A stretch of DNA of 53,525 bases from Elusimicrobia bacterium CG_4_9_14_3_um_filter_62_55 (GTDB lineage Bacteria; Elusimicrobiota; Elusimicrobia; UBA1565), in contig PFUL01000069.1 in NCBI GenBank assembly GCA_002790095.1, positions 1 to 53,525 of the forward strand. Reading direction: 5' to 3'. The first letter of the stretch is position 1; every line of letters starts with the position of its first letter. The notes below the pieces were generated by a model that worked only from the letters and a program-made list of their open reading frames with translations, searched no databases and had not been told where the DNA came from. Shown piece after piece: positions 4,001 to 34,741 of the stretch. The position numbers were made by a program, and so were the translations under genes.

Positions 4001-4513
4001 TTCGCGAGCGGCGCCGAAATAGAGACCGTCGAGAATCGCGCCCTTGGCGTCGGGCGCGCTCCCCGCTTTCTCAAGCCGCGCGACCGCGGCGGCGACGCCG
4101 GCGCGAACGGTTTCTTGAGGCTTCACCGCGGGCACGGCGGCTGCGGTCGCGGCGGCGCGCGAGGCGGGGGAAGGGAATTTTCGGGAGACGGCGGCCGGGG
4201 AAGCGGCCGCCCGAGTCGGGGCGGCGGCTTCGGCGGCAAGGACCCGAGGCGTTGCCAATACCGCCAAAGAGGGAAGTGTCCCACCGGGGAGCGCGGGCGC
4301 GAGCGCGGCGCCGGGGAGGGCGCTTGATCCGCGCCCAGACAACGCCGGCAAGGAGAGGGAAACGGGAGCGGCGGAGGGGGCGGCCGTTTTTGCAAGCGCC
4401 GAAGCCGCGGCGCGCGCCGCGGGGACGCCGAAAGAAGAAATCCAGACCGCGAGCGCGAGCAGCCCCGAAAGGCATCGGGCCGCGCGATCCGCGAATCTGG
4501 AATGAAAATGCAT
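1013..4513 (-). CDS. Exported HAD phosphatase-MFS transporter fusion
   Basis: About 1166 residues. I chose the ATG at 4513 over the GTG at 4519 because a strong AAGGAGGT lies at 4518-4525, correctly spaced for the ATG but overlapping the GTG. Residues 1-35 form a Sec signal peptide ending ARA-A. An Ala/Pro/Ser-rich stretch follows (including TLPSLAVL), then a helical region containing DYEVHRAALRALD. Next is a HAD domain with motif I LSDYDRT (D295, D297), motif II LLTDRP and a partly altered GDSFMPEA motif near 530. From about 598 to the end is a multi-spanning MFS transporter (GLFAQRT, then VGPLNGWLVDKLSARN). The 7737-11591 product is a full-length paralog. I infer that HAD faces the periplasm and MFS sits in the inner membrane. 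Substrate unknown. Confidence 0.8.
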   Translation of the reverse strand: MHFHSRFADRAARCLSGLLALAVWISSFGVPAARAAASALAKTAAPSAAPVSLSLPALSGRGSSALPGAALAPALPGGTLPSLAVLATPRVLAAEAAAPTRAAASPAAVSRKFPSPASRAAATAAAVPAVKPQETVRAGVAAAVARLEKAGSAPDAKGAILDGLYFGAAREGVNAADAVDGSGAPKRRADASLKKLAIGELVAAAARSERALDSRLAAVRVLEKVPGAEGRAALEEVAAANPEGGASDYEVHRAALRALDLVHGVLRSLRPISEAHRKAILTDLAAEKPEIVLSDYDRTLAGTKEEISPRMAAALAAVFAADVEIALLTDRPAQPRFKGDITIFQSLAPMSPAQKEKLTVLSDIGAKTSLFDRNGSAVLIEESRSEWTPAERRVLADASRALKARFAEQDFLGNTEVYESDSYERFLPRSLGDEEIAEAGRIVDGVLKEGGLSGTHIVARRPLGAGDVPYVRVSAIDKSAAASRVRRDIRSLERARDTLRWGGGARALRWVGKIFSRFPARPIAARNTLVLGDSFMPEAVAPGADALMAQGAPGARVIAVAAAASPRLDNVFVWPTAGEAASLEILGAVASMPAGEADKKAVAGLFAQRTIAITTYILTTIAFTAISVPVIGWVGYGAVMAVGSLAPIAVGPLNGWLVDKLSARNSMAINTAARVVLDLFPPVLVLLGLINTPMLIIASVANFWILSSVMTTEGAYIKRLAGKKYVGPVNSLLWMNYLVVQVVLALILGFGAVVGMVGPINAYFIAAAINALVILPLVWFTMPNHKPMEPARTDSPRPSASERAAKTRAALLELVKRYRVGLVLLAASILSFVFVWHSPVPVALALAYLVTRTDGAKQLWAGRGRDVGKREQELVERIRAMEADGKNGSDELKAAKSELERWKKSPRIAMLYIALGAMTLGPLQSFAIPRFTEAVTGLPMSSPESTLLFGQYLGALFFGSLIANAAQVRLPELKVPFFGRIAGQRFLQGLVALLAPVWVYTSLAPGSVLASLGAFAAAALLMTLAAKLTNRAWIRILGLGMAGLWLPFFAWGSSWLSPATAMFLTVILAGAVYGPSFVALKTIFEGGLQKNVLGKMIGVQGSLLNAARSVAIGGTAAIYGALNPAFPIFLAVLGGFYAAIGVAFWLAPRFFPGLPKTMLRPGEHQE

Positions 4514-4517
4514 CGCC

Positions 4518-4525
4518 ACCTCCTT
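4518..4525 (-). promoter_or_regulatory. Strong Shine-Dalgarno site deciding the 4513 start
   Basis: On the minus strand AAGGAGGT precedes GGCG and then ATG. This spacing favours the ATG at 4513 over the upstream in-frame GTG at 4519, whose first bases overlap the end of the Shine-Dalgarno site. Confidence 0.8.
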
Positions 4526-5448: not shown

Positions 5449-7740
5449 CTATTTCTTCTTATTCTTTTCGGCGTCGCCGAAGGGCATCACCTTGCTGCCG
5501 ATCAGGAAGATCACCGCGATCGCCGCGTAAAGCGCGGCGACGACGTACCAGGTGAACGGGAAGGCGTCCGTGATCCCCCAGAGCTTCTCCGGAAGAACCT
5601 TGGCCAGTCCGTAGAGGGCGTAGGCCGAAGAGACCGCCATGGTGAAAAACGAGCCCTTGATGCCGGAGATGAACTGGTAGTTGTCGTCGGCGTGCTGCTT
5701 CGCCTGCTGGCTGAAGGTGGCGCTGATGGTCCGCGCGGCCGGGTTGTGCAGCATCCCAAACAAAAACAGGCTTCCGAAAAGAACCGGGAAATTCCCCCAG
5801 AACAACAGCGGCGGAATGCCGACCGCGAGCAGGCCGATCGCTTCCATGCGCAGCCATCCGGCGTCGGAGACCTTCGGCGTGTAGTCGTGTACGAGGTGGT
5901 AGAACTTGATGATGACCGGCGCGAGCGCGGCCGCAAGCCAGCCGGCGGGCAGGATCACGCTCATCGTCCAGCCCGTCAAGACCAAGGCGCCGACCCAGCG
6001 CATCGTCTTCTTGAGGTTGAAGGAGACGGGTTTCTTCAATTTCCACGGCCCGATCTTCCCGATCTCGATGTCGAGCCCTTCGGACAGCATCCCGGTTCCG
6101 GTGACGAGTTGGCCCATGTAGAAGGCCGCGATCAGTTTTCCGTAAAACGCGGCGTTTCCCATCTCGCCCGAGATTTCCTGCGAGAGCGCGCCGAGCACGG
6201 CGTTTCGCATCGGAACCTCGACGAACGCGGTGACCATCACGAGGACGAGGCCGAGCTTGAGCAAAGTGTTTTTCATGATCACGCGGCGGAACACGTCCGA
6301 GCGCATCAGCACGAGGCTCATCGCGCCGATGATCCAAAACGGGGTTTGATAGACGAACAGGTAGCCGAGCACGGACGCCGCGAGAACGGCTCCGTTGATG
6401 AGATACCCCCGGGCGGAAGCCCGATCGGGAACTCCCTCGCCTAAAGAGCGCAGCGCCCGCGCGGCATTCGCGGGAAGCTCTTTGAGAACGGTCCAAAGCG
6501 GCTTGCGTCCCGGTTTGTAGCCGATGTCCGGCAAGGTCTTCCAGAGGATGAACGCCGGAACGGCGGTCACCGCCGAAACGATGCCGAAGGTCCAGACGAA
6601 GCCGAGCGTGTCGACGATAATCGAGCCGAGGAACATCCCGGACGCGATGTTGGTCAAAATGCTCGCGACGCCGATCATCGCCTCGGTGGAGCGGATCTTG
6701 TTTCGATGGGGGCCGACGATTTCGGCGGTCATCGCCTGATCGGTGATGAACAGGCTCGCGAATTGAAACGAGTTGACGACCGTCAGAAGGAGCAGCGTCG
6801 AGAAATTGAGGAAGCCCATCGCGTACAGCGCGGCGTTGGCGAGAGCCAGCCCCGAGCGGAGCACGTTGTTGTAGACGATGTACTTTTTCAGCGGCATGTG
6901 GTCGCCGATTTTTCCGACGATCACGTTCATCCCGATCGAGATGATGCCGCCGATAGAGAAGAGGTCGTACATGGAGGCCTTTCCGACCGAGTCGATGAGC
7001 ATGAGCGGATAGGCCATCGCGCTCAGCGAGAATCCGACCATGCCGAACGGGCGGGAGAGGAACATCCCCATGATGCCGCGCTTTTGTTCGGGAGAGAAGC
7101 CGTCGTCGTCGGTTTTGCCCTGAGTGGGGGGAGCCTTCGGCTCGGCCGCATCGGCGGCGTTTTGCGGCGTTTTGCGCTGCAGGCCGCTTCGCAGCGTGCG
7201 CGGGGCGCCGGGGGAAACGGCAGCCGCTTCGGCGCCCGCGGCGGGACGAGAAAAACCGGAGAAGAGGCGATTTAAAGCGATTTGGGATTGCTCCGGGGAG
7301 CGCGCCTCGGCGAGCGACGCGGCGCCGGCCTCCAAGCTGCCGCGCGCGGCGGCGGGGCTGCGCGCGGCGGGCGGGGTCCGGGAGGGGGCGCGGACCTGCG
7401 TCGGGGAGAACGCCGCCGCTTTCTCAAGGACGCGGGGCGGCGCGGCGGGAAGGGTACGCGGCGCGGCCGCGGCCTCCGAAGCGGCCGGAGAGAGGAGGGG
7501 GGCGTCGAGGGTCACGAGTGCGCTCGACGCGAGGCCGGGGGCGGCGAGAGTCCCGCCGAGGGATAAGGAGAGCGGGGCCGCGAGGGCGGGCAAGGGGATG
7601 TTCCCGGCGGCGAGGCCGAACCCGGAAACCGGCGCCGATTTCCCGGCGACGACGCCGGCGAACGCGCGCGTCGAGAACGGACCGGGCGACGCGAGAGTCA
7701 GAGACAGTACTAAGGAGAGAGCGCTCGCGCGTCCCCTCAT
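5449..7740 (-). CDS. Signal-peptide-bearing MFS transporter with long N-terminal region
   Basis: About 763 residues. The open frame extends 5' to 8172, but that part merely shadows the end of the 7737-11591 gene. The true start is the ATG at 7740, which overlaps the upstream stop as ATGA (7737-7740) and opens a good signal peptide (MRGRASALSLVLSLTLASPG). Residues to about 220 are Ala/Pro/Ser-rich with IPLPALAAPLSLSL and the short motif LNRLFSGFSRP shared with its neighbours. The rest is an MFS-type carrier starting near MGMFLSRPFGMVGF, with a loop motif VGKIGDHMPLKK. There is no HAD domain. The protein ends in a Lys-rich tail (EKNKKK). Coupling to the HAD-MFS gene suggests that they act together. 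Substrate unknown. Confidence 0.78.
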   Translation of the reverse strand: MRGRASALSLVLSLTLASPGPFSTRAFAGVVAGKSAPVSGFGLAAGNIPLPALAAPLSLSLGGTLAAPGLASSALVTLDAPLLSPAASEAAAAPRTLPAAPPRVLEKAAAFSPTQVRAPSRTPPAARSPAAARGSLEAGAASLAEARSPEQSQIALNRLFSGFSRPAAGAEAAAVSPGAPRTLRSGLQRKTPQNAADAAEPKAPPTQGKTDDDGFSPEQKRGIMGMFLSRPFGMVGFSLSAMAYPLMLIDSVGKASMYDLFSIGGIISIGMNVIVGKIGDHMPLKKYIVYNNVLRSGLALANAALYAMGFLNFSTLLLLTVVNSFQFASLFITDQAMTAEIVGPHRNKIRSTEAMIGVASILTNIASGMFLGSIIVDTLGFVWTFGIVSAVTAVPAFILWKTLPDIGYKPGRKPLWTVLKELPANAARALRSLGEGVPDRASARGYLINGAVLAASVLGYLFVYQTPFWIIGAMSLVLMRSDVFRRVIMKNTLLKLGLVLVMVTAFVEVPMRNAVLGALSQEISGEMGNAAFYGKLIAAFYMGQLVTGTGMLSEGLDIEIGKIGPWKLKKPVSFNLKKTMRWVGALVLTGWTMSVILPAGWLAAALAPVIIKFYHLVHDYTPKVSDAGWLRMEAIGLLAVGIPPLLFWGNFPVLFGSLFLFGMLHNPAARTISATFSQQAKQHADDNYQFISGIKGSFFTMAVSSAYALYGLAKVLPEKLWGITDAFPFTWYVVAALYAAIAVIFLIGSKVMPFGDAEKNKKK

Positions 7741-10700
7741 TTGCCGTCCGCGGACTTGTTGATCATGTCCTTGGGAAACCCGGGGAGCCGGGCCGGCGCG
7801 CGCCAGGTCAGAATCCCGCCGAGGATGAACAGGACGCCGAAGACCGCGAGCATCGACGGGAACGCGGGCGTGAACAGGCTCGCCGCCAGCGTCGCGAGGC
7901 CGTAGCCGAAGGAGATGGCCGCGTTGAACACCGACCCCTGAACGCCGACCGCGCGTCCCATCGACTTCATGTCCTTGTTGCGGTGGAAGTAGCTGATCAG
8001 CGAGGTGAAGGAAGGGCCGTAGAACATGCCGAGCACCACCATCGCCAGCATCACCGCCGGCGCCACCGGCATCAAGCCCGTGGTCCACGCGAGATAGGGA
8101 ATCCAGATCGCGGAGAAGCCGGCGCCGAAGAGCTTGAGGTAGCCGGTGTCGGAAAGCTTGTTGGCCAGCCACATCAGCGCCGCCGCGATCGCGGCCGCGC
8201 CGCCCGCCGCGAGCAGGCTGCCCGGCAGCAGGCCGGTGTACACCCAGGTCGCGGCCAAGGCGAGCACGCCGGCCTGAATCAGGCGTTCGCCGGGAACGCG
8301 CATGCCGATCACCGGCAGGCGCACGTCAGGCATCCGGGCCTTCGCCGCGTTGGCGATCAGATTGCCTAAGAACAGCGAGCCGAGGAACTGTCCGAGCAGC
8401 AGGCCCTTTCCGGCCGCGCCCGCGAGCGCGCCGGCGATCATGGCGAGGCCGAAATACTGAAGCGGGTACATAAGGAAAGCGGTCAGCCCCAAAAGAAGCA
8501 TCGCGGTGCGCAAACGGTTCTGGTGGGACGAGATTTCCTTCTTGAGCCGCTTGATCGCGGCGGGGGCGGTCTCTTTCTTGAGCTGATCCTCGAGAGCGGT
8601 TTGGGCCTTTGAGGGCTCGCCGCCCTTTCCGTACCAGAGCGCCTTAAACGCGTTGGTCGACGCGATCCAGTGGACCAACGCGGCGACGATCGGAATCGTC
8701 GAGGTCAGAAAGGTCGACGCGATTTTAGGAAGCCCCGCGAGCAGCGCGGCGACGACCGGCAAGCCGGCGTGGGTCAGCGCGTAGAGAGCGACCGCGGCCG
8801 CCATGAGACCGGCGGGCAAGGCGTGCGCGCGCAAGGCCTTCTTGATCCGGGCGGAGCGCGAATCTCCGCGTCCGAGTTCAGAGAGGGACTGGGCGATCGC
8901 GCTGCGGCGCAGTTGGTTGTCCGCTTCGCGGAAGTTGATCTCGCCGCGGATTTCACGTCGGCGTTCGCGGCTCGCGTCCTTCGCTTCGTCCTCGAGTTCA
9001 GCGATGCGGGCGGCGTTGGCCGCGACGGCGGCTTCGTCTTCGCCGAGCGTCTTTTCAAGCGCGGCGGAGCGCTCCGCGAGCGCTTTCTCCAGCGCGGCGA
9101 CCTCCTCGGCCGCCCCGTTCTTTGCGCGCAGTTGGGAGAGGAGCTTGCCCATGCTCTGCAGCGTCTTCGGGGCGGGCGAGATGTTGGGCATCGTGAACCA
9201 GATGATCGGCAAAACGACCGCGGCGTGAACGATCGCCGAGGCGTAGAAGGCGAACATCGGGTTGAGCGCGTCGATGATCGCACCGGCGCCGATGATCGAT
9301 CCCAAAACGACTTGGATGACCAGGTAGTTCATCCACGCGCCGCTGTTGACCGTGTTGGTGTGCTTGTCTCCGGCGAGCCGGCGGACATAGGCGCCCTCGG
9401 TCGTCATAATGGAGGAGAGCAGCCAGCCGTTGGCCACGGAGGCGATCAAGAGCGAGGTGAAGTTCAGGTATCCGAGCGCGGCCAATACCGGCAAGATCAG
9501 CGCGAGAGCCGCCCGGACGACGGTGTTGAGGGCCATCGCGTTTCGCGCGGAGAGTCGGTCCACGATGAGTCCGTTGAGCGGTCCGGTCGCGATCGCCGCG
9601 AGAGGACCGAAGGCCATCAACGCGCCGAATTGCGCGACGCCGACCGCTTCGATCGCGATGAACGGGTAGGCGATCGAGGTGAGGATGAAGACGCCGATCG
9701 AGAAGGTGCGCTGGGCAAAGAGGCCGATGACGGCCTTCTTCTGGAAGCCGCTGGGTTCTTGCGTCGCGACCGCGCGGAGAATCTCGCGGGAGGCCTCGGC
9801 CTCCTGCCTCGGCGCGACGAAAAGGTTCTTGTAGCGGGGGTCGCCTTTCCCACCGACCGAGATCTGGGTCCCGTCCGGAGAGGCCTTGGCGAATCCGAGG
9901 TCGGCGTTGCGCGTATCGTAGAACTGATCGCCGACGGAAAGAACCTTCCGGTCCGCGACCGGGCGGGCGAAGCGCTTGGACAACGCGAGCGCCCGGCGGA
10001 TCAGTCCGGCGGGGGCGCCGAGGCGGACCAGCGCCCGGGCGAGTTCGGCTCCGCGGCGGTCCGCCTTGGTCGGAAGAACTCCGGTGCGCTTGTCGATCTT
10101 GGAGAAGGTCAAATACGGCGGATCGGTGTCCTTCTTGGCCATGCGCGCGCTGACTTCGATGTCCATCCCGCGCGCGGAAAGTTCGGCGGCGAAGAACGCG
10201 GCGGCTTCCTTCACGCGCGTCTCATCCATGCCGATGGGGAGAAAATGAGCGAAGCCGTAGGCGCTGCGTTCGTGCGTCTTGCCGTTGTATTCCTGTTCGC
10301 CGTACGCGCCGACGACGACGGCGTGAGCGGCGTCGATGGCGGCTCCTTCCGCTTTTGACCAGGCGACCTTGTCTTCGCGCACGAGGACGGCTTCCCCGCG
10401 CTTGTCGAAGAACAACGCGCGCGTGCCGCGGCTGGCGATGACGCCGACGCCCGCTTTCTGCGCGGGGCTCAGCGGCGCGAGCGAATCCAGAACGGTCACG
10501 TCCGTTTCGCGTTTCTTCGCGTCGGGACGGTCGGTCAAAATGAACAGTTCCACTCCCGCGTCGGCCGCGGCCTTCAGGGCCTCGCCGGTTTCCGCGGCGA
10601 TCGGTTGGTTGAACGGGGCGAGCGTGTCGTCGTAATCGAAGAACGCCATCTCGGGTTTTCCGGCGTCGGAGGCGAGCGTCGCGAGGATCGCCTTCCAGTG

Positions 10701-11591
10701 GGCGTCGGTGACCGGGCGAAGCGTGCGAAGGTCGGCGTGGTCTTCAGCGAGGGCGCGCAGAGCGGCGCGGTGCACCTCGTAGTCGGCCGCGTCGCGCGCG
10801 GCGTCTCCTTGAGCGTCCGCGGGGGTTTGGGCGATCGTCTCGAGCGCCGCTTTCGCGGACGCGCCCTTGGCGCGAAGCGCCGCGACCGCGGCGAGGCGTT
10901 CGGCGGCCGGTTTCGAAGCGTCGAGGGCCTCCGCCGAGAGCTGCGCAGCCGATTTTTCCGCCAGCGCGGGGGAGTCGGCGCCGTTGAACGCGACGGGCGC
11001 GCGCCGCAGCAAAGAACGGGAGCGGCCGAAGAGACCTGCGCCGGCGACGGCGACCGCTTCGGCGGCGTCGCCGGGCCGCAGAGAGCCGGTGAAAATCTTA
11101 TCAAGCGCGGCGCCTTTCTCCGAGGGCGACTTCGCGTCTTCGATCGCTTTCGCGTTCGAGGAAAGGGTGCTTCGCAGCGAAGATTTCGGCGCCGCGGTTT
11201 CGGCCGCTCGAGCGGCGGGCGCGTCGGCGGTCCGGGCGGCCGGTGCCGACACCGTGTCCGCGTCCGGGATCCGCGAAGGCGCGCTTTGAGCGACGGCGCT
11301 CGGAGCGGAGAGGGAGGGAGCGGCCGATTCGAACACGGGCGCGCTGAGCGACGGAAGGCCACCGAGACCCATGGAGGGGGCCAAGAGAGAGTCGATCGCT
11401 CCCGGCACCAGCGGCGCGCTCAAGGACGGGAGCGACATTCCCGCGGCGGGAACGCCCGCGTTGCCCGAAACGGCCGTCTTGCCTATGACGGCCGCGAGCG
11501 CCTGCGCGCCGGGAGCCGCGGCGATCAGCGCAGCGGCTAGCGAGATGCATAGAAATTTGTAAGGAAGCGGAAGCGGATTCTTGTTTTCCAT
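7737..11591 (-). CDS. Exported HAD phosphatase-MFS fusion, second paralog
   Basis: About 1284 residues. The open frame extends to 11762, but ATG 11591 opens a clear signal peptide (KFLCISLAAALIAAAPGAQALA), so I use it. An Ala/Pro/Ser-rich stretch with repeated LPSLSAP follows, then LDKIFTGSLRPGDA and FNGAD motifs and the block DYEVHRAALRAL shared with the 1013-4513 product. The HAD domain has DYDDT (D319, D321), ILTDRP and GDQFYDTRNAD, so its catalytic set looks complete. MFS helices begin near 617 (GLFAQRTF, then TGPLNGLIVDRLSARN). The central loop carries a charged coiled coil at about 814-904. Stop overlaps the next gene's start as ATGA. I infer a periplasmic phosphatase tethered to its own transporter. 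Confidence 0.8.
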   Translation of the reverse strand: MENKNPLPLPYKFLCISLAAALIAAAPGAQALAAVIGKTAVSGNAGVPAAGMSLPSLSAPLVPGAIDSLLAPSMGLGGLPSLSAPVFESAAPSLSAPSAVAQSAPSRIPDADTVSAPAARTADAPAARAAETAAPKSSLRSTLSSNAKAIEDAKSPSEKGAALDKIFTGSLRPGDAAEAVAVAGAGLFGRSRSLLRRAPVAFNGADSPALAEKSAAQLSAEALDASKPAAERLAAVAALRAKGASAKAALETIAQTPADAQGDAARDAADYEVHRAALRALAEDHADLRTLRPVTDAHWKAILATLASDAGKPEMAFFDYDDTLAPFNQPIAAETGEALKAAADAGVELFILTDRPDAKKRETDVTVLDSLAPLSPAQKAGVGVIASRGTRALFFDKRGEAVLVREDKVAWSKAEGAAIDAAHAVVVGAYGEQEYNGKTHERSAYGFAHFLPIGMDETRVKEAAAFFAAELSARGMDIEVSARMAKKDTDPPYLTFSKIDKRTGVLPTKADRRGAELARALVRLGAPAGLIRRALALSKRFARPVADRKVLSVGDQFYDTRNADLGFAKASPDGTQISVGGKGDPRYKNLFVAPRQEAEASREILRAVATQEPSGFQKKAVIGLFAQRTFSIGVFILTSIAYPFIAIEAVGVAQFGALMAFGPLAAIATGPLNGLIVDRLSARNAMALNTVVRAALALILPVLAALGYLNFTSLLIASVANGWLLSSIMTTEGAYVRRLAGDKHTNTVNSGAWMNYLVIQVVLGSIIGAGAIIDALNPMFAFYASAIVHAAVVLPIIWFTMPNISPAPKTLQSMGKLLSQLRAKNGAAEEVAALEKALAERSAALEKTLGEDEAAVAANAARIAELEDEAKDASRERRREIRGEINFREADNQLRRSAIAQSLSELGRGDSRSARIKKALRAHALPAGLMAAAVALYALTHAGLPVVAALLAGLPKIASTFLTSTIPIVAALVHWIASTNAFKALWYGKGGEPSKAQTALEDQLKKETAPAAIKRLKKEISSHQNRLRTAMLLLGLTAFLMYPLQYFGLAMIAGALAGAAGKGLLLGQFLGSLFLGNLIANAAKARMPDVRLPVIGMRVPGERLIQAGVLALAATWVYTGLLPGSLLAAGGAAAIAAALMWLANKLSDTGYLKLFGAGFSAIWIPYLAWTTGLMPVAPAVMLAMVVLGMFYGPSFTSLISYFHRNKDMKSMGRAVGVQGSVFNAAISFGYGLATLAASLFTPAFPSMLAVFGVLFILGGILTWRAPARLPGFPKDMINKSADGK

Positions 11592-12268: not shown

Positions 12269-12791
12269 CTGCTGATTCAGTTGTTATGAGAACCTCTTCT
12301 TTGTTGGGAACAATAGTTAGAGTAAAGCGTCTGTCGTCTTTCGCGATTTCCAGGTCCAAAGCACCATCGGAGATCGGTCCCGGAGTAATCTCGTCCGGAA
12401 AAAAATCAAAATTAACCAGGTGGCTGGATATTCTATTTAACAGACGCTTTGATAAAAATACCGTGTCGCGATCAAATGATGGTGCCGTATATCCGTCCCA
12501 ACCCGGAGGCAGGGTTAAATAATGGTCGAGCTCTCTAGAAGCTGCCTCGGAGAGAGACAATATTCTGCTTGAAAGAGAAGATAGGGAAGGGAATTCAAGA
12601 ACTGTCGTTGGCTCTTCGATATCCCTAAGGATGCTCCGCAAAGTTAACTCGTCTGTGGCGACCTCGGAAATGTCGAAGCGCGGGAGTATGCGATCGGCGC
12701 GCTCTACATATGCAGACGACCGGGTCAAATCGCGAACGTCACGGGGCTCTTGGTTAATAGCGTGATTATCTGCAACATGAGTAGCTAGCAT
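12195..12791 (-). CDS. Hypothetical protein with LPPGWDGY motif
   Basis: About 198 residues from ATG 12791, whose first base overlaps the upstream stop (TAATG). The longer frame starting at 12839 would overlap the upstream gene by 49 nt and is less likely. The centre carries LPPGWDGYTAPSFDRDTV, a motif I associate with uncharacterised proteins encoded beside TIGR04255-family genes. The C-terminal half looks like a small beta-rich domain (LDLEIAKDDRRFTLTIVPNKEEVLITTE). It is soluble, with no signal peptide. Codon and base composition are more AT-rich than the neighbouring GC-rich genes. Function unknown. The tight overlap with the TIGR04255 gene implies a joint role. Confidence 0.68.
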   Translation of the reverse strand: MLATHVADNHAINQEPRDVRDLTRSSAYVERADRILPRFDISEVATDELTLRSILRDIEEPTTVLEFPSLSSLSSRILSLSEAASRELDHYLTLPPGWDGYTAPSFDRDTVFLSKRLLNRISSHLVNFDFFPDEITPGPISDGALDLEIAKDDRRFTLTIVPNKEEVLITTESADGYKEKPVELRNLNLEKELSWLNS

Positions 12792-13522
12792 TATTCCGCC
12801 CCTCCCATAACCTCTCCTCTCGTCTTGTCGGTAATCCAAGATTCAAAACACCTGGTGGAATCCGCATGGAGGTCTTCCAAGACTGTCGTTATCTCTTCGC
12901 CCGATGAGATCATTTTCTTGAATGCCGTAGTAGCTTTAAGATCAAAGTTTTCCGGTCCGCGGCGGAGAGAACATCGAAATTGTTCGTTGAAACCATCCGC
13001 CTCAAGAAACCCTTTTCCAAGGGTAATATCCAGTGGGGTTTTAGCACTCTTGTACCAGCTGGGGATAAGTGGGCCGCCGACGTTCAAATAGTCGCTCAAT
13101 TCAAAATCTTTTTGCGGGCGGGAAAATTTATCAATAGTGTGTAGAGCTAAGGCTTTAACTTTGAGTGTGGGAGACAAGGCTCGAAGCTTATCGAGAATGC
13201 TATCAAACAGGCTTCGATACTCTTCCCAACCAGGGTAATTCCCGACCAAGTTTACAACGAGGAGGTCTTGTGAAAGCTGAACCAGTTGAGATTTATCACT
13301 ATTCCAGCAACGCACGCGCGGTGTGGGCGCGATTTGCTGTTCAATATTGTCACCTTTAATCGTTTCTCCGCGAACCATTAAGGGTTGCCCGACTTCAACA
13401 GTTCCCATCCCGATTTCCTTTATCTTGGGAACAATGTCGAAAAACTTCTCGGGAGTTAGAAACTCTCTAGAAAAGAACAGCTCTGTATAAATTTCAACCA
13501 GGGTGGGCTTCTTGTAGTTCAC
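12791..13522 (-). CDS. TIGR04255-family protein
   Basis: A 243-residue protein starting at a GTG (13522) with GAGGG upstream. The N-terminus (YKKPTLVEIYTELFFS) and the block QLVQLSQDLLVVNLVGNYPGWEEYRSLFDSIL match what I know of TIGR04255, a sporadically distributed bacterial family of unknown biochemical activity often found on variable islands. It is soluble and lacks transmembrane segments. It heads a three-gene minus-strand cassette whose members overlap, and its DNA is visibly AT-richer than the flanking genes, which points to horizontal acquisition. A defence or toxin-antitoxin-like role is plausible from the distribution pattern but is not shown by the sequence. Confidence 0.65.
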   Translation of the reverse strand: MNYKKPTLVEIYTELFFSREFLTPEKFFDIVPKIKEIGMGTVEVGQPLMVRGETIKGDNIEQQIAPTPRVRCWNSDKSQLVQLSQDLLVVNLVGNYPGWEEYRSLFDSILDKLRALSPTLKVKALALHTIDKFSRPQKDFELSDYLNVGGPLIPSWYKSAKTPLDITLGKGFLEADGFNEQFRCSLRRGPENFDLKATTAFKKMISSGEEITTVLEDLHADSTRCFESWITDKTRGEVMGGAE

Positions 13523-13723: not shown

Positions 13724-16438
13724 CTAAACTTTTTTCTTGGCCTTGTTGGCTTCCTTAAGCTCCTTGCGCGCTTCGCGTTCGGCCTTCAGGCGCTCCTTCT
13801 CCATCATTTCCTCGGTGAGGTTTCCGCTGTGCTTGCGCATTTTCAGCATCAGGAGGTTGATCGTCTTCTCGAAGGTCAGGCGGTCGAATTCGTTGATCGT
13901 GCGGCCCTGCATGCCGCGCGGGAAGATGAACGCGACGACGCGGGAGACGACGGTCTGCAGCTTCTGCGTCAGCGAATAGGGGGCCGTGATCGTCGGCCAA
14001 AGCCGGCGCGAGAAGTAGTCGTAGAGCTGCACCTGCAGGTCCTTGCCCCAGTGCTGGATCGCCGGCGTCTGTCCGGTTTTGAAGTCGGTCACGAACACTT
14101 CGAGGCCGCCCTTAACTTCCTTCGCGACGACGAGGTCGAAAAGCCCCCGGAAGATGTCGCGGTGGGTCTGTTCGCCTTCTTTGTTGTAGCGGTCGACCAC
14201 CATCAGGTTCGGAAGCTCGGTGCCCAGCGCGATCGGATACAGCTTCAGCGCCTGGCGCAGTTCTTCGTACATCGTGAACATGCGCGCCTCCATCGCGTCG
14301 CGGTAGCCGAGCGTGGTCTCGCGCGGCCGTTCGAGCATGTTGGTCGTCACGTCGAGCTGTTCCCGGACCCAGATTTCGCGGGCGACTGTAAGCGTCTCCT
14401 CGAACGGAGGGAGTTTTCCGTCCTCGTTGTACTTCATGACGGCCCAGTCGAGCGCCGTGTGCCCGACATGTCCCATCAGCATGTAGATGCGGTATTCGAA
14501 GCCGCCCGCGCCGCCGTAGAGCTGACGGTACTTGAAGGATTTCATCGACGAAGCCGAGGCCGCCAGATCGCCGACTTTGTTGACGCGGTAGTCGCCGAGC
14601 ATCGCGGCGAGCGCGGTTTCGATGTAGTCCTCGCGAGCGGTCGTCTTCGGCATCACCGCCGCCGCGTGCATCGCGCCGGGGAGCGCCGCCTGCAGGGCCG
14701 GGTCGTCGGTGACGGTCAGGATGTGCTGTTGGTTGAGGTAGAGGCCTTCGGAGGTCTGCAGATCCTTGATCAGGCTTCCCATCGCGCGGGCCAGCGTCGT
14801 CGGCCGCGCCTGAACCACCGGCGTTCCTTCGTGTTCCCCGAGCGTGAGCGCGTAGGCGTCTTCAGGCATGCCGAAGCGCTTCAGTTGGGCGTCGAACGCC
14901 TTTTTGAGGTCCTCGAGGCCGACGCCGCGCTTGGCGCGCATCGAGAGCAAGAATCGGCGGTCTTCGACGACGATCCCGGAGCTCGTCGCGCCGGCGGCCC
15001 GCTTGAGGATCTCCTGCTCGTCGGCCTTGAACTGCCGGGAGGCCTTGAGCTCTTCGAACGATCCCGAAAAGCCGTAGAGCGTGTTGCCGTCGTTGGACAG
15101 GCTCAGCAGTTTCCAGCGGGTGACGTCGTTTTGCTGATGCGCCGGCGTATCGCGCCGAATCATCCGTTCGACTTCCTCCTGGGTTTTGTCCGAGAGAAGG
15201 ACGAAGGTCATGCCGGCCTTCTGCAGTTTTCCCATGTCTTCGAGCACGTCGAACGGGATGCGGTCCCCGTACAGGCGCAGATCGAAGAGAACGAGCCGCG
15301 GAAGCATCCGCTGCAGGTCTTTAAGTCCGGCCGGGATCTCGAGTTCTTTGCGCTCGCGGAATTGAGGGGTCTTTTCGACGCCGTTGTCGGGCAGATCGCG
15401 GGCTTGATCGTAGGGCAGGAAGTGGAGGACGCGAACCTTCATCTCGCTGCTGATGACCTTCGGCGCGTTCAATTTCCGCTCGGACTTCCATTTGATTTCC
15501 TCGAGGAGCTTCCTCTCTAGGCGCGCGAGCTGGGCCGTGTCGGTTTCGCCGCCCTTCTTGGCGGTGATGCGCGAGCCGTAGTAGCTCTTGTAGTCCTCGA
15601 GAGTCAGGTCCTTGATCTTGTGGGTGTAGGACTTCACGATTCGCGTGATGAACTGAACCTGCCCGCCCGCGATGACGCGGATAGGAATCCGGCGCTGGTA
15701 GCGTCCCCAGAAACGTTCGCTGCCGGCGTTGTTGATGGGGCGGATCGAGGCGGAAATCTTCGAGTCGAAGAGCTTGCTCCGATTGGTTTTCCCGAACCAG
15801 AGGTCGAGAGCCTCGTCCTCGTCTTGCGGCGCGATTTGAAGGTCGCTCGCCGCGTCGGCGCGAACCTTCGCGTCGACTTCGGCGTCGACGGCATCCTCGG
15901 AGAAATCGGCGCCGTTGAGCGAGCCGCGGCGTCCCCCGAAATCGAACAGGCGGTTGAGCGTGGCGGCGTTGATCCCCGACGCGGGCGCGGAACGGCCTTG
16001 CTGCACGAGCGCGACCGTCTGTCCGACCGTGCGGCTTTTCGCCGCGGCGGCCTTATAGGACGGGGCTTCGGTTAAAGCGGCGGCGTTGGAGACTTCGGCG
16101 GAGGCCCGGACCGACGGGCGCGCGGTCGCCGTCGGGGCCTGCCGTGCCAAAGCGGCGGCGGCCGGGGTTTCGGCGACGGCCGAGGCCGCGGCGAGACCCT
16201 GGGTCTGCGCGACGGAGACCGGCAGCAAGGACGGAAGCGACATCCCCAAAGACGGGGCGGCCAGGCTCAGCGCGGTCGCGGCGGAGGCGCCGTTGCCGAC
16301 GAGGGCGGCGGGTCCGGAGACGGGGGCGATGCGCGGCGCCGAGGGGGAGACGGCGATATTTCCGGCGAAGGCTCCGGAAGCGGAGTTCGCCGCGATCGCG
16401 AGCGACAGGACGACGCGAGCCAGGATGTTTTGGGTCAT
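13724..16438 (-). CDS. Exported protein with degenerate HAD and intact RecB-like nuclease domain
   Basis: A 904-residue protein whose ATG directly follows the upstream stop (TAG-ATG at 16436-16441). A signal peptide (VVLSLAIAANSASGAFA) precedes an Ala/Ser/Pro stretch with LGMSLPSLLP, then LNRLFDFGGRRGSLNGADF. Near 377-560 is a HAD-like fold with motif I changed to LFDLRLYGD and LLSDK at motif II, so phosphatase activity is doubtful. The C-terminal third matches the PD-(D/E)XK RecB/AddB/Cas4 pattern: GHVGHTALDW (H660), FRGLFDLVV (D768), VTDFKTG (D785, K787) and QVQLYDYF. E. coli RecB has its nuclease residues in the same order and similar spacing (H956, D1067, D1080, K1082). A Lys-rich tail ends the protein. 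An exported nuclease of this superfamily is unusual. The alternative is a non-catalytic DNA-binding role. Confidence 0.68.
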   Translation of the reverse strand: MTQNILARVVLSLAIAANSASGAFAGNIAVSPSAPRIAPVSGPAALVGNGASAATALSLAAPSLGMSLPSLLPVSVAQTQGLAAASAVAETPAAAALARQAPTATARPSVRASAEVSNAAALTEAPSYKAAAAKSRTVGQTVALVQQGRSAPASGINAATLNRLFDFGGRRGSLNGADFSEDAVDAEVDAKVRADAASDLQIAPQDEDEALDLWFGKTNRSKLFDSKISASIRPINNAGSERFWGRYQRRIPIRVIAGGQVQFITRIVKSYTHKIKDLTLEDYKSYYGSRITAKKGGETDTAQLARLERKLLEEIKWKSERKLNAPKVISSEMKVRVLHFLPYDQARDLPDNGVEKTPQFRERKELEIPAGLKDLQRMLPRLVLFDLRLYGDRIPFDVLEDMGKLQKAGMTFVLLSDKTQEEVERMIRRDTPAHQQNDVTRWKLLSLSNDGNTLYGFSGSFEELKASRQFKADEQEILKRAAGATSSGIVVEDRRFLLSMRAKRGVGLEDLKKAFDAQLKRFGMPEDAYALTLGEHEGTPVVQARPTTLARAMGSLIKDLQTSEGLYLNQQHILTVTDDPALQAALPGAMHAAAVMPKTTAREDYIETALAAMLGDYRVNKVGDLAASASSMKSFKYRQLYGGAGGFEYRIYMLMGHVGHTALDWAVMKYNEDGKLPPFEETLTVAREIWVREQLDVTTNMLERPRETTLGYRDAMEARMFTMYEELRQALKLYPIALGTELPNLMVVDRYNKEGEQTHRDIFRGLFDLVVAKEVKGGLEVFVTDFKTGQTPAIQHWGKDLQVQLYDYFSRRLWPTITAPYSLTQKLQTVVSRVVAFIFPRGMQGRTINEFDRLTFEKTINLLMLKMRKHSGNLTEEMMEKERLKAEREARKELKEANKAKKKV

Positions 16439-19400
16439 CTATTTGCCCCCCTTCGTCCGGACCGGTTTCTTCCCGGTCCCCGGGTCCTTCTTCGTCTTTT
16501 TCGCCGCCTTGATCTCTTCGTCGGTTGCCTTTTCGTTCTCGGCCTTGAAGTGCTCTTGGAATTCTTCATCGGCGCGCATGCGCTCGATCAGGTTCGCGAT
16601 TTCCTTGACGACGACGCCCTGACGGTAGCTGCCGTTGGGGAGAATCTTGAAGAAGTCGCTCGGATCGAAGTAGAGGTCGCGAGCGGCCTGCTTGTACTCC
16701 AGGCGGACGTGGAGCTTCGCGATGCGCGGTCCCTGCGCCCAGCCGTCATGCCATAATCCGTCGTTTCCGGGTTGGGCGAATCCCGCGAGGATGGCCATCG
16801 CGAGCGTCTTGGCGTAGATGCCGCCGCCGTCGCCTTCGAAGGGCTCCTTGCCCGTGCGGTAGGCGGTTACGGAAAGGACTCGCCCGTCTTCGGTGTCATG
16901 CTTCATCAGACGCGGAAGACGCGTGAAGACCTTGTAGATTTTCCCGCCGGACTTGAAGACGAGCGTGATCAGGCTTTGGCGGTCGGTCGTGAGAGCGGCC
17001 ATGTTGTGCATGATGTCCTGAGCCGCGTCGCTGTAGTGCTCGAAGGTCCGGTCGTAGATGTTGCTAAACAGCGTCAGCGCCCGCTCGAGGTAGCCGCGGG
17101 AGCGCTCCTTCCAGCCGGGTTCAGTCATCACCGCCGCTTGCCGCTTGCTGACGAACACGCCTTCCTTTTCGGGGTTGCGCCACATTTGGCGCAGGCGCTC
17201 TTTGGCGTGCGACTTCGTCGTGTTTCGCGCCTGGCCGCGCCAGACGTTCTCGAAGAGTTCCGGCATCAGCTTATAAAGGATGGAGCCGGTGAACATCGCC
17301 ATGGGGCCGTGGTAGCGGCGGTCCTCTTCGGAGGTCGGCGCGCTTTGGTGCGCCTCGCTCTCGAAGTTACCGGCGCGGCGTTCGAGCATCGGCTCCCAGA
17401 ACTCGCTGTAGGAGCGGATTTCGCCGAGCTTCACGCCGACCTGCTTCTGTCTGCGGTCTCCCAGGACGTTGCCGAGGAAATCAAACAACTCGGCTTCGTT
17501 CTTGGCCGGGCGAAAGGTCGTGAGCTTGGGCCAGGCCTTCGACAGCTTCAACGAGCGCCTCGAGTTCCCGATGACGAGGAAGGTCTCGGGCCGTGAAAGG
17601 ATCTCCTCCCCGTGAAAGCGCTTATCGAGCGCCGCGAAGACTCGATCCAGGGAGACCCGCATCGGCTGGGACCGGACCCAGAGTCGGCGCGGATTGGAGG
17701 GATGCTTCTGGATCGTGTAGTCGAGCCCCTCCGCCTTCATCGCGGCGTTGAAGCCGCGGATCATTTTGGAGCGCAGCGCGGCGACCTCCGCTTCGGGAAC
17801 CGAGGCGGGGATCCAAAGGTTGTATTGGAACGTAGACTTGGCGTTGGGGATCGCGTCGAATTCGAGTTCTGTATCGAGATCCCCCGCGAGTTCGTTGGCC
17901 GCCGCGTCGAAGGTTTTCAGCGTTTCTTCGTTGAACGCGCGGCTGTCTTCGATGTAGGGCTTCGGGTCGGCGGCGCGCGAATGGAGCGCGACGCGGCCGC
18001 CGTTGTAGCTGACGACCATGACGGGATTGGTTTGGCTCACCTTGAGCCGCGAGAGCAGGATCGAGTCGGCCGAATCTTCTCCCGTATGCGGGCGGGCCGT
18101 CATGAAGACGACGTGGGCGCCGGCGTTGATCAGGCGCTGTACGTAGTCGACGGTCGCCTCAGAAACGGGTTTGTCGAAGATGTCCTCAAGGAAGACGACG
18201 CGCGGCGTTGCCTCGAGATCGTCCTCGATTTGCGTTCCGTCTTCGTCGATCGGTTCCGGAGTCTTGGCATTGGCCGGCCATTTGACTTCCGATTCGAGAA
18301 TCTCGATCGGAGCGGCCCCTTTGGAGGGGGACGGCCGAAGGGAAGCCGCCTCACTAAGGAAGGGGCGAAGCCGGTCTCCGGCGGCCGCGTCGGGGAAGTA
18401 GGAGGCGAACAGCTCGCGCAGCGCGCCGCCCTTCTGATCCCACTCGGTGCCGTCCCAGTCCGTGTTCGGAGCGACCCGGCTCTTTTTCTTCGTGGAGGCG
18501 ACGTGCTTGAAATCGGCCTGAGCCGACTCGATTTCGTTGATGAGCTGCAGGGCTTTCGGGCCCTGGGAAATGGAGCCGTCCGCTTCGATTTGCAGAAGCT
18601 CCTCGGGCGTGAAGTCGAAGGTGCGGGCGCGCTTGAGATATTCGACCGAGACGGTGATGCGGGCCAGCGCCGGCCCCTGAATCGAGCCGTGATGCCACTT
18701 GAGATCAAGCCCCTTGCGGCCGTAGCCGCGCAGCACCGCGAGCGCGACCGCGCGGGCCTGCGCTTCGTCGCCGTCCGTCGCAGATTCCTTGCCGAACCTG
18801 TAAATCGTCGCGTTGAGCTCGCGTCCTTGAACCGTGTCGCTCTTCATGACGCGGTCGATGGAGACGCCGAGGTTGTAGCGGCGCCCCGTAAACGGCGACC
18901 GAAGCGGCACCTGGGTGTACACCTTTCCTTCGGTCACTAGGTTTTCCCGGATGTCCAATTGCGCGGCGCGGTAATCGCCGACCTCGCGCGCCCAGAAATT
19001 CTCGGCGAAGCGCTCCGCGTGGCGAAGGTATTCGGCGTTGGCGGTCTTCCCGCCCTTGGAACCGCGATAGCGCTGGAACTTCGCGTCCCGCGACTTTCCG
19101 GCCCAGCGCATCCGCAGGGAATCCCGAAACTTTCCGAAGTTCGTGTACTTCGTTCCCGCGCGGGCCGTGTCCACGTAGAAATCGGTCATCAGGTCGTGGA
19201 GGACCTGCCAGGTGAACAGGCCGAAGCGGCCCGCGGAAGTGTTGGCGCCGCGCTTGGGCGAATTGCCGCTGCGTCCGATCACGGGACGCCAGAAGTCGAG
19301 GTACTGGCGCATGTCGCTCATCGAAACGTCGAGGGGGGCCTGTTCGGAAGGCTTCACGACGGAATCGAGCAAAGCGGCCTGGGCGTCCGGGTCGGCGGCG

Positions 19401-20761
19401 TCGAGCACGGTCGCGTCGCGGAACACCCCGGGGACCGATTCGGGGTCGGCGGTGATCGTGCGCATCAGAGGCTCTCGTTGACGGGTGTTCATCAAGACGA
19501 GCGTTTCCTGTCCTTTTTCGGAGAGGGATTCGTCGGCGAAGCGGTCGTTGAGGGCACGGTCGATGCGGCCCAGCGCGAGACGGGGCGCGAGCGCGTGAAC
19601 GATCACGGCGTTCGGGTCGTCTTGGTGGGGCTGCATGCGGTAGGGGGATTTGGAGGCGCTCATGGAGCGGTTGAACTTCGCCATGAGATCAGCGCGTTTT
19701 GCCGCGTCCTTCCCTTCGAGGTGGAAAGTGACGCTGAGAGGGTTTCCCTTCGCGGGGGAGACGGTGTAGGAGGGCGCGGAGGAAAGTTTGGAGCGGCCCG
19801 CAGCGAGGGCGGCGACTTCGGCCAAGCGCTCGATGTCGGCGGCTTCGAACGCCCCGGCTTCGCTCGCCACGGACCATTTTCCGCCGGTTTCCATAAAGGA
19901 GATGCGGGCTCCCGAGTAGCTCGCGACAAGGACCGGATTGTTCTTGGCGGGCTTGAGTTTAGAGAGAAGGATTTCGTCGATCGATCCGGCGCCGCGGTCG
20001 GGTCGGTCGGTCAACACGACGACGTGCACGCCTTCGTCGATCAACGTCTGCAGGCGGCTGAGCGTTGTTTTCGGCGCGGCGGCCGAGAAGGAGTCGTTGA
20101 TGACGACGGTCCGCGGAAGATAGGAACGGATGTCGCTGCCGTCTTTGAGCGCGTTGAAGACCACGTCTCCGAGCGCGCCGCGGCGGGCGGGAGCCGCTTT
20201 CTCGCCGCGAACGCCGTCCGCCCCGTTGAAGGCCGAACGCTTTCCTGAACCGTCGAAAACGCGTCCGAAGAACGAGGCGATCGCGCGTCCGAATCCGCCG
20301 CGCTTTTCGCGCGCGACGGCGGCGCCGAGTTCCCGCGCGCCGCTGAGCGCGGGTTTTTCTTCGCGACGAGAGGCGCTCGCCGCGTTTTGGAAAACGGGAG
20401 ACGGTGATACGCGCGCGGCGGGCGCGGCCGCGCCGAAGGCTTCGGGCGCCGACGGCGTTTTCGTCGGGGCGGCCGGGGGCAGCGCGAGCGCCGACGCGGC
20501 GGAGGCGGCCGGTCCGGAAGGAATCGCCGAGGGAGTGAGAGACGGAAGCGCCGAGGGGGAAAGAGAGATCCCGCCGGAGAGGGCGGGATCGGAGAGGGCG
20601 GGAGCGGAGAGCGTTCCAAGGGGGAGAAGCGTTCCCGCCGGGGCCGGTGCGGTGGCGTTGACCGCGCGACCCGCGGCGATCGTACGGCTAAAAACCAGCG
20701 GTGCGTCGCTGCATACCAGGGTAAAGACAAGAATTCCGGCTAGGGACTTTCGTGCGATCAT
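16439..20761 (-). CDS. Exported giant protein with two degenerate HAD + RecB-like modules
   Basis: A 1440-residue protein from ATG 20761, preceded by GAGGG. A signal peptide (SLAGILVFTLVCSDAPLVFS) and an Ala/Pro/Ser region with ISLSPSALPSLTP come first, then RVFDGSGKRSAFNGADG. Two repeats follow. Repeat 1 has a HAD-like part (TVVINDSFS near 215, VVLTDRP) and a nuclease-like part with H522 in FTWQVLHDLM, D636 in SIDRVM and IYRFGKE at 653. Repeat 2 has VVFLEDIFDKP near 854, VFMTARP, then FTGSILYKLM, RLPRLM and AYRTGKE near 1298. Aligned with DFKTG of the downstream gene, the catalytic D and K are replaced (D to I or A, K to R), and repeat 2 also lost the H and first D. I infer a scaffold or regulatory subunit for the active downstream protein. 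Confidence 0.65.
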   Translation of the reverse strand: MIARKSLAGILVFTLVCSDAPLVFSRTIAAGRAVNATAPAPAGTLLPLGTLSAPALSDPALSGGISLSPSALPSLTPSAIPSGPAASAASALALPPAAPTKTPSAPEAFGAAAPAARVSPSPVFQNAASASRREEKPALSGARELGAAVAREKRGGFGRAIASFFGRVFDGSGKRSAFNGADGVRGEKAAPARRGALGDVVFNALKDGSDIRSYLPRTVVINDSFSAAAPKTTLSRLQTLIDEGVHVVVLTDRPDRGAGSIDEILLSKLKPAKNNPVLVASYSGARISFMETGGKWSVASEAGAFEAADIERLAEVAALAAGRSKLSSAPSYTVSPAKGNPLSVTFHLEGKDAAKRADLMAKFNRSMSASKSPYRMQPHQDDPNAVIVHALAPRLALGRIDRALNDRFADESLSEKGQETLVLMNTRQREPLMRTITADPESVPGVFRDATVLDAADPDAQAALLDSVVKPSEQAPLDVSMSDMRQYLDFWRPVIGRSGNSPKRGANTSAGRFGLFTWQVLHDLMTDFYVDTARAGTKYTNFGKFRDSLRMRWAGKSRDAKFQRYRGSKGGKTANAEYLRHAERFAENFWAREVGDYRAAQLDIRENLVTEGKVYTQVPLRSPFTGRRYNLGVSIDRVMKSDTVQGRELNATIYRFGKESATDGDEAQARAVALAVLRGYGRKGLDLKWHHGSIQGPALARITVSVEYLKRARTFDFTPEELLQIEADGSISQGPKALQLINEIESAQADFKHVASTKKKSRVAPNTDWDGTEWDQKGGALRELFASYFPDAAAGDRLRPFLSEAASLRPSPSKGAAPIEILESEVKWPANAKTPEPIDEDGTQIEDDLEATPRVVFLEDIFDKPVSEATVDYVQRLINAGAHVVFMTARPHTGEDSADSILLSRLKVSQTNPVMVVSYNGGRVALHSRAADPKPYIEDSRAFNEETLKTFDAAANELAGDLDTELEFDAIPNAKSTFQYNLWIPASVPEAEVAALRSKMIRGFNAAMKAEGLDYTIQKHPSNPRRLWVRSQPMRVSLDRVFAALDKRFHGEEILSRPETFLVIGNSRRSLKLSKAWPKLTTFRPAKNEAELFDFLGNVLGDRRQKQVGVKLGEIRSYSEFWEPMLERRAGNFESEAHQSAPTSEEDRRYHGPMAMFTGSILYKLMPELFENVWRGQARNTTKSHAKERLRQMWRNPEKEGVFVSKRQAAVMTEPGWKERSRGYLERALTLFSNIYDRTFEHYSDAAQDIMHNMAALTTDRQSLITLVFKSGGKIYKVFTRLPRLMKHDTEDGRVLSVTAYRTGKEPFEGDGGGIYAKTLAMAILAGFAQPGNDGLWHDGWAQGPRIAKLHVRLEYKQAARDLYFDPSDFFKILPNGSYRQGVVVKEIANLIERMRADEEFQEHFKAENEKATDEEIKAAKKTKKDPGTGKKPVRTKGGK

Positions 20762-34585: not shown

Positions 34586-34591
34586 GCTCTC

Positions 34592-34625
34592 AGCGTAACA
34601 TTGACCCGGTCTGGTTGCTTGGGCC
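34592..34625 (-). promoter_or_regulatory. Promoter-like element GGCCCAA-N21-TACGCT
   Basis: On the minus strand GGCCCAA (34619-34625) is followed after 21 nt by TACGCT (34592-34597), which sits exactly 6 nt before ATG 34585. It matches the elements at 11602-11635 and 20837-20870 in both boxes and spacing, and implies a leaderless mRNA. Further GGGCCC boxes lie upstream around 34668-34680. Confidence 0.5.
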
Positions 34626-34741
34626 GTGCGGCCCCCCTTTTGCGGACATTCGACCCCCGGAAGTCTGGGCCCGGGGGCCCGGGGTTTGTTTGTCAAAAAG
34701 GACTTACGCAAACTGCTAAATTGTTGATTGCGAGCGATTTT

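What the first reader, a model, noticed from the sequence alone, without database searches (positions are those of the whole stretch)
13724..20761. Exported operon with three HAD-like + RecB-like nuclease modules, only one with an intact active site
The two adjacent genes (stop and start abut at 16436-16441) encode proteins with signal peptides. In the downstream protein I read the complete PD-(D/E)XK RecB-type set: H660, D768, D785-x-K787 and QxxLY. The upstream protein holds two more copies of the same module. Aligned on RVMK/RLMK and the RTG/RFG motif, the distance from the first Asp position to the D-x-K position is 17 residues in all three copies. Copy 1 keeps H and the first D but has I-Y-R for D-F-K. 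Copy 2 has Y, P and A-Y-R. Each module is preceded by a HAD-like fold with a broken motif I. Loss of catalysis in tandem copies with retention in one suggests a catalytic subunit plus a scaffold or sensing subunit, as in AddAB-type enzymes. Exported members of this nuclease superfamily are rare. The domain assignment rests on motif reading only.
Basis: partly seen in the sequence, partly recalled or inferred. Interest (0 to 1): 0.85.

Follow-up and report, generated by a model that had tools for sequence, protein, structure and literature searches.

The report
Exported RecB-type nuclease with inactive partner
Elusimicrobiota bacteria carry a two-gene unit whose proteins appear to be sent out of the cytoplasm: one keeps the full active site of a DNA-cutting enzyme normally found inside cells (the RecB/AddB/Cas4 family), and the other is its relative with the active site lost in every copy seen, which suggests an undescribed DNA-processing machine outside the cytoplasm.

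Summary
P1 (13724-16438, minus) has a RecB-family PD-(D/E)XK domain above Pfam's cut-off. H660, E741, D768, D785-x-K787, Q802 and Y806 are invariant in 32 Elusimicrobiota homologues. P2 (16439-20761, minus) carries two degenerate copies. Profile-profile comparison puts P2's AYR/IYR on P1's DFK. A weak AlphaFold model of P2's copy, searched with Foldseek, ranks AddB and Cas4 first. In 34 P2 modules the catalytic Asp is never acidic and Lys is always Arg.

P2 abuts or overlaps P1 wherever the contig reaches it, and the two co-evolve (r=0.97). Both have Sec-type signal peptides and almost no cysteine. The genome's eight other PDDEXK_1 proteins contain cysteine and lack signal peptides; they include two AddAB-like pairs. 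So this is not the cell's repair nuclease. There is no helicase and no iron-sulfur staple, so "AddAB-type" fails as membership. The pattern resembles RecB/RecC: one active copy, one dead.

The two-copy P2 is specific to one family. The usual downstream neighbour is a leader-bearing MFS or ABC transporter.

Best reading: an extracytoplasmic nuclease/pseudonuclease pair that degrades DNA outside the cytoplasm. The anatomy is well supported; complex formation and purpose are inferred. New variant of a known kind.

The parts
16439..20761 (-). P2, 1440 aa: signal peptide and leader, then two HAD-like + degenerate RecB-like modules; no intact active site
13724..16438 (-). P1, 904 aa: signal peptide and leader, conserved middle region, HAD-like domain, RecB-family nuclease domain with complete motif set
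20195..20761 (-). P2 leader: signal peptide, Pro/Ala/Ser-rich linker, VFDGSGKR...FNGAD end motif
15884..16438 (-). P1 leader: signal peptide (cleavage-like AFA-G), Pro/Ala/Ser-rich linker, LFDF...LNGAD end motif
19343..20131 (-). P2 HAD-like domain, copy 1 (D223 kept, second Asp lost)
18431..19342 (-). P2 RecB-like domain, copy 1: H522 and D636 kept, I653-Y-R in place of DxK
17450..18229 (-). P2 HAD-like domain, copy 2 (Cof-type HAD match E 2e-4, below the curated cut-off; D860 kept)
16487..17449 (-). P2 RecB-like domain, copy 2: Y1163, P1283, A1300-Y-R; hhalign 92% to P1 nuclease; AlphaFold model resembles AddB/Cas4 nuclease domains at low confidence
15332..15841 (-). P1 middle region (residues 200-369), no known family, conserved W244, D282
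14657..15346 (-). P1 HAD-like domain (D386 invariant in 31, motif IV degenerate)
13799..14656 (-). P1 RecB-family PD-(D/E)XK nuclease domain
14459..14461 (-). H660, motif I His, invariant 32/32
14216..14218 (-). E741, invariant 32/32
14135..14137 (-). D768, GxxD-type Asp, invariant 32/32
14078..14086 (-). D785-F786-K787, the D-x-K motif; D and K invariant 32/32
14021..14035 (-). Q802-V-Q-L-Y806, the QxxxY motif; Q and Y invariant 32/32
7737..11591 (-). Downstream leader-bearing HAD + MFS transporter protein
5449..7740 (-). Downstream leader-bearing MFS-like protein; assigned by clustering with the other two, no Pfam match of its own
1013..4519 (-). Downstream leader-bearing HAD + MFS transporter protein

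Best explanation
P1 and P2 are two co-translated proteins exported by the Sec route that most likely assemble into one extracytoplasmic nuclease complex. P1 supplies the only intact RecB-family PD-(D/E)XK active site (H660, D768, D785-x-K787, QxxxY). P2 is a paralogue of P1's HAD-nuclease module whose nuclease-like fold has lost the active site; it probably binds DNA or P1 as a positioning subunit, as RecC's degenerate nuclease domain does beside RecB. With no helicase, the likely substrate is DNA with free or single-stranded ends present in the periplasm or at the cell surface. Shown by sequence: domain identity, intact versus lost motifs, constraint on both, obligate adjacency, recurring signal peptides. 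Inferred: actual export, complex formation, DNA as substrate, and degradation of incoming or environmental DNA as the purpose, with an adjacent leader-bearing transporter acting in the same process.
For: PDDEXK_1 above cut-off in P1 and matched by 28/32 homologues. Seven catalytic-motif residues invariant in 32 diverse homologues. The RecB-family motifs superpose on canonical PDDEXK_1 proteins of the same genome (hhalign 92%, E 6.5e-7). P2 domain homologous to P1's and its model's best PDB hits are AddB and Cas4. DxK Asp never acidic and Lys to Arg in 34/34 P2 modules, yet dN/dS is about 0.06-0.09 for P2 domains and 0.10 for P1's nuclease (from dN and dS). P2 lies within 10 bases of or overlaps P1 in nearly every locus where both are visible; identity matrices correlate at r=0.97 and the gene trees agree. 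Signal-peptide-like N-termini in the full-length proteins of both families. Cysteine: 0 in P1, 1 in P2 (inside the signal peptide), against 0.8-2.3% in the genome's other PDDEXK_1 proteins.
Against: No structure of P1's nuclease domain: the one AlphaFold run, on a single sequence, failed (pLDDT 42). The P2 model is weak (pLDDT 56, pTM 0.40) and no Foldseek hit is below E 1e-3. The P1-P2 homology signal drops to 8% probability when 24 columns around RTG are masked. No signal-peptide predictor was available; export rests on hydropathy, cleavage-like motifs and cysteine depletion. Complex formation and substrate are untested. The MFS partners weakly resemble H+-antiporter exporters, which fits nucleotide uptake poorly.
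Confidence: 0.62

Rival explanations
1. Nutrient scavenging: the pair digests extracellular DNA and neighbouring HAD phosphatase/MFS proteins dephosphorylate and import the products.
For: Leader-bearing HAD-MFS proteins with D-x-D-x-T motifs share the operon and the leader; secreted nucleases are common in environmental bacteria (PMC11495043).
Against: The MFS family resembles exporters, weakly (TIGR00900); in other genomes the slot holds an ABC exporter-type protein; no nucleotidase family was recognised.
Confidence: 0.3
2. A gate on DNA entry: the pair degrades incoming phage DNA, or the non-transported strand during natural transformation, in the periplasm.
For: The RecB-family motif set (H, D, DxK, QxxxY) is shared with single-strand exonucleases such as Cas4 (PMC3466216); conserved chromosomal setting and predicted export.
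Against: No PADLOC match; no competence or defence gene recognised beside it; no match in phages or plasmids.
Confidence: 0.2
3. A secreted antagonistic nuclease (toxin) with P2 as immunity or chaperone.
For: Exported nuclease, a paired inactive homologue, and transporters next door.
Against: P2 itself carries a signal peptide, whereas nuclease immunity would be needed in the cytoplasm; the nuclease domain is strongly conserved, not polymorphic (dN/dS 0.10); no toxin delivery module recognised.
Confidence: 0.08
4. Cytoplasmic DNA repair enzyme of AddAB type with mis-read signal peptides.
For: Same nuclease family and active/inactive pairing.
Against: No Walker A or helicase domain; the genome has two other AddAB-like pairs; signal-peptide-like N-termini and cysteine depletion recur across homologues.
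Confidence: 0.05
5. P1 is not an active nuclease; the fold is used only for binding, as in the Cas4-derived capsid protein TP1 of TTV1.
For: Precedent for exaptation of the fold (PMC4625639).
Against: Complete invariant motif set in 32 homologues, whereas TP1 lost catalytic residues.
Confidence: 0.05

Closest known systems
RecB-family PD-(D/E)XK nucleases (PF12705; AddB, RecB, Cas4, MGME1)
   Same: Complete H / E / D / D-x-K / QxxxY motif set in order; Pfam match above cut-off; profile alignment to canonical members of the same genome
   Different: Exported, no helicase, no cysteine and so no iron-sulfur staple; fused to a HAD-like domain and an uncharacterised middle region
RecBC / AddAB pairs
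   Same: Two genes for large proteins sharing nuclease-type domains; as in RecBC, one is active and one is degenerate (RecC: own knowledge)
   Different: No helicase domains; extracytoplasmic; the genome's own AddAB-like pairs are elsewhere
HAD superfamily, Cof/IIB type (PF08282, TIGR00099)
   Same: P2's HAD-like domain matches weakly (E 2e-4 to 2e-3); first Asp of motif I kept
   Different: Scores below curated cut-offs; second Asp and motif IV lost, so probably not a phosphatase
Secreted bacterial nucleases (endonuclease I, NUC, SNase, HNH types)
   Same: Predicted exported nuclease
   Different: Unrelated fold; the activated-sludge survey PMC11495043 listed other domain types for its nuclease search, so this class would probably be missed
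TTV1 TP1, inactivated Cas4-derived protein (PMC4625639)
   Same: RecB-family fold with lost catalytic residues, kept for another role
   Different: Viral nucleocapsid protein; P2 is encoded beside an intact paralogue

Membership tests
RecB-family PD-(D/E)XK nuclease (P1) | H, GxxD-type Asp, D-x-K and QxxxY in order, conserved | tested here: met
   32/32 for H660, D768, D785, K787, Q802, Y806; superposed on canonical members
RecB-family PD-(D/E)XK nuclease (P1) | Family profile match above cut-off | tested here: met
   PF12705 26.9 bits against 22; 28/32 homologues match
RecB-family PD-(D/E)XK nuclease (P1) | Restriction-endonuclease-like core with residues in one cleft | tested here: inconclusive
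   AlphaFold on one sequence failed, pLDDT 42
RecB-family PD-(D/E)XK nuclease (P1) | Metal-dependent nuclease activity | not testable with these tools
   needs an assay
RecB-like fold, P2 domain | Homology to a RecB-family domain | tested here: met
   hhalign 92%, E 5e-7, well above shuffles; Foldseek top hits AddB and Cas4 from a weak model
RecB-like fold, P2 domain | Intact active site | tested here: not met
   Asp to A/V/I/S/L and Lys to Arg in 34/34
AddAB / RecBCD | SF1 helicase domain with Walker A | tested here: not met
   no Walker A, no helicase Pfam match
AddAB | Iron-sulfur staple of four cysteines in AddB | tested here: not met
   P1 has no cysteine
HAD phosphatase (P1 and P2 HAD-like domains) | DxD motif I and acidic motif IV | tested here: not met
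   first Asp kept; second lost in all P2 modules and 21/31 P1; motif IV degenerate
Sec-exported protein | N-terminal signal peptide | tested here: met
   h-region in the full-length P1 (21) and P2 (22) proteins examined, A-x-A sites common, no later segment clearly TM-like in nearly all; no dedicated predictor available
Sec-exported protein | Extracytoplasmic location in the cell | not testable with these tools
   needs fractionation or reporter fusions
Known anti-phage defence system | PADLOC profile match | tested here: not met
   no match

The most novel reading that the evidence does not exclude
A helicase-free, extracytoplasmic counterpart of RecBC: an exported RecB-family nuclease obligately paired with a catalytically dead paralogue, sharing an operon-specific leader of about 180 residues with three HAD/MFS membrane proteins, forming a membrane-associated machine that handles DNA as it crosses the cell envelope.
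Probability: 0.25. Interest if true: 0.82.

Novelty: new variant of a known kind. Interest (0 to 1): 0.58.

Why it matters
RecB/AddB/Cas4-type nucleases are known as intracellular repair, replication and CRISPR enzymes. A conserved exported pair, active plus inactive, in a phylum with few cultured members would be a new place and role for the family. It would extend the theme of dead nuclease domains kept as positioning subunits (RecC) to a helicase-free system, and it offers a candidate enzyme for DNA processing outside the cytoplasm. Surveys that search secreted nucleases by the usual families would miss it.

Tried and rejected
AddAB-type enzyme: rejected as membership (no helicase, no iron-sulfur cysteines, separate AddAB-like pairs elsewhere in the genome). 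Cytoplasmic enzyme with a chance N-terminal hydrophobic stretch: rejected because signal-peptide-like N-termini and cysteine depletion recur across homologues. Leader as a two-pass membrane hairpin that would return the enzyme to the cytoplasm: second hydropathy peak reaches 1.6 in only 2 of 21 P1 and 2 of 22 P2, so not favoured. Mobile or phage origin: no match in viral contigs, plasmids or phages.

Full report
WHAT WAS CHECKED. The window is contig C19 of a 4.3 Mb Elusimicrobiota genome (a 74%-identical P1 homologue lies in Elusimicrobia bacterium NORP122). The two ORFs are as described: P2 16439-20761 (minus, 1440 aa) upstream and P1 13724-16438 (minus, 904 aa) downstream, with stop and start abutting.

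P1 IS A RECB-FAMILY NUCLEASE BY SEQUENCE. Pfam PDDEXK_1 matches residues 635-822 at E 5.7e-6, above the curated cut-off, and 28 of 32 homologues match it, best E 2.8e-12. In 32 homologues found across the phylum, down to 22% identity, the columns H660, E741, D768, D785, K787, Q802 and Y806 never vary. Five canonical PDDEXK_1 proteins of the same genome were aligned independently, and hhalign superposes the motifs of P1 on theirs (92%, E 6.5e-7). The structure was not obtained: a single-sequence AlphaFold run failed.

P2 CARRIES DEAD COPIES OF THE SAME MODULE. Profile-profile comparison of the P1 nuclease and the P2 domain gives 92% and E about 5e-7. The real score of 52-55 exceeds 150 column shuffles (maximum 25) and 100 block shuffles (maximum 32); masking 24 columns around RTG leaves 28, so much of the signal sits there. 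The HAD-like halves agree much more strongly (99.5%, E 6e-23), in the same order, so the whole two-domain module is paralogous. A weak AlphaFold model of P2 1105-1425 (pLDDT 56) retrieves AddB (3u4q, 4ceh, 4cej) and Cas4 SSO0001 (4ic1, probability up to 0.95) at the top of a search of 350,542 PDB chains, with MGME1 further down; no E-value is below 1e-3, so this is supportive only. Across 34 P2 modules the DxK Asp is A, V, I, S or L and the Lys is always Arg. The inactive domains are nonetheless constrained: dN/dS about 0.06-0.09, against 0.10 for the active nuclease and 0.34 for the linker (ratios).

HAD DOMAINS. The P2 HAD-like domain matches Cof-type HAD profiles weakly. The nucleophile Asp is invariant, but the second Asp is lost in all P2 modules and most P1 proteins, and motif IV is degenerate. 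'Broken motif I' is therefore half right.

EXPORT. Both families carry signal-peptide-like N-termini with cleavage-like A-x-A sites, and in nearly all no later segment clearly reaches a membrane-helix threshold. A cruder rule-based scan passed only 20 of 34 P1 and 17 of 30 P2 entries, partly because several entries are truncated at contig ends or start too far upstream. P1 has no cysteine in 904 residues, P2 one, inside the signal peptide, and most P1 homologues have none after the signal peptide. The eight other PDDEXK_1 proteins of this genome have 0.8-2.3% cysteine and no signal peptide; four form two adjacent AddAB-like pairs. No dedicated signal-peptide predictor was available.

PAIRING AND HISTORY. 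P1 was found in 32 of 341 Elusimicrobiota genomes and P2 in 33. Where the contig reaches, P2 lies directly upstream, nearly always between a 4-base overlap and a 10-base gap (a few loci where the automatic ORF start is too far upstream or a frame is broken give larger figures). Identity matrices correlate at r=0.97 over 27 loci and the trees broadly agree. P2 has one module in most genomes; the doubled form belongs to family f1, the window's own. Genus g9 contains two deeply split versions of the pair, so transfer or differential loss of the pair as a unit has probably occurred.

NEIGHBOURS. In about two thirds of loci a leader-bearing transporter lies downstream of P1 on the same strand, usually within a few hundred bases and sometimes overlapping by 4 bases: an MFS protein in most, an ABC exporter-type protein in others. 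In the window there are three such proteins (1013-4519, 5449-7740, 7737-11591), two with a HAD domain keeping D-x-D-x-T. A profile of the leader finds in the whole genome exactly these five proteins plus three weak hits (the five match by construction, but the near-absence of others is informative). The MFS family also occurs in genomes without P1.

HOW IT MOST LIKELY WORKS. P2 and P1 are translated together, exported, and probably form a complex in which P1 cuts and P2 positions DNA or P1. This is the RecB/RecC logic without a helicase. RecB-family enzymes with this motif set include single-strand exonucleases such as Cas4 (PMC3466216), so free or single-stranded DNA ends are the likely substrate. 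Whether the purpose is nutrition or a gate on DNA entry is open; the exporter-like character of the neighbouring transporters does not favour nutrition. An inactivated relative kept for binding has precedent in the TTV1 capsid protein derived from Cas4 (PMC4625639).

NOVELTY. No paper found describes an exported RecB-family nuclease; the library covers open-licence papers only. Pfam gives only the superfamily for P1, and PADLOC nothing. The activated-sludge secretome survey (PMC11495043) searched other nuclease domain types. I rate this a new variant of a known kind.

Noticed in passing
1013-4519, 5449-7740, 7737-11591, 13724-16438, 16439-20761 (all minus): Five proteins of the cluster share a leader of about 180 residues: signal peptide, Pro/Ala/Ser/Leu-rich linker, LF-x-G-x-R...N(A/G)AD end motif. 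Whole-genome search finds it in these five plus three weak hits. It may be a docking or sorting module.
   Followed up: partly
L039:4767-7154 and other leader-bearing MFS proteins: Topology puzzle: the MFS loops follow the positive-inside rule with a cytoplasmic N-side before the first membrane helix, yet a signal peptide with an A-x-A site precedes the leader, which would put that side outside.
   Followed up: partly
L046:2633-5959, L048:8627-11545: ABC exporter-type proteins with signal peptide and long leader occupy the place of the MFS protein next to P1 in some genomes; L048 seems by eye to have three extra membrane segments that would restore normal topology.
   Followed up: partly
12791-13522 and 12195-12839 (minus): A TIGR04255-family protein (E 6e-19) and an unknown protein, overlapping each other, lie between P1 and the transporters here and not in the same-genus locus L003; possible insertion.
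   Followed up: partly
31832-34711 (minus): Exported-looking protein joining an Rce1-like (CAAX protease) membrane domain (just under cut-off), a trypsin-like protease and a PDZ domain, with a similar Pro/Ser/Leu-rich leader.
   Followed up: no
P1 residues 200-369, 15332-15841 (minus): Conserved region with no recognised family (W244 in 30/30, D282 in 30/30).
   Followed up: no
41881-53525 (plus): Open frame of at least 3881 codons with a signal-peptide-like start running off the window end; a giant exported-looking protein.
   Followed up: no
L036-L062: Genus g9 holds two deeply divergent versions of the P2-P1 pair, one of them grouping with the versions in family f2, suggesting transfer or differential loss as a unit.
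   Followed up: partly
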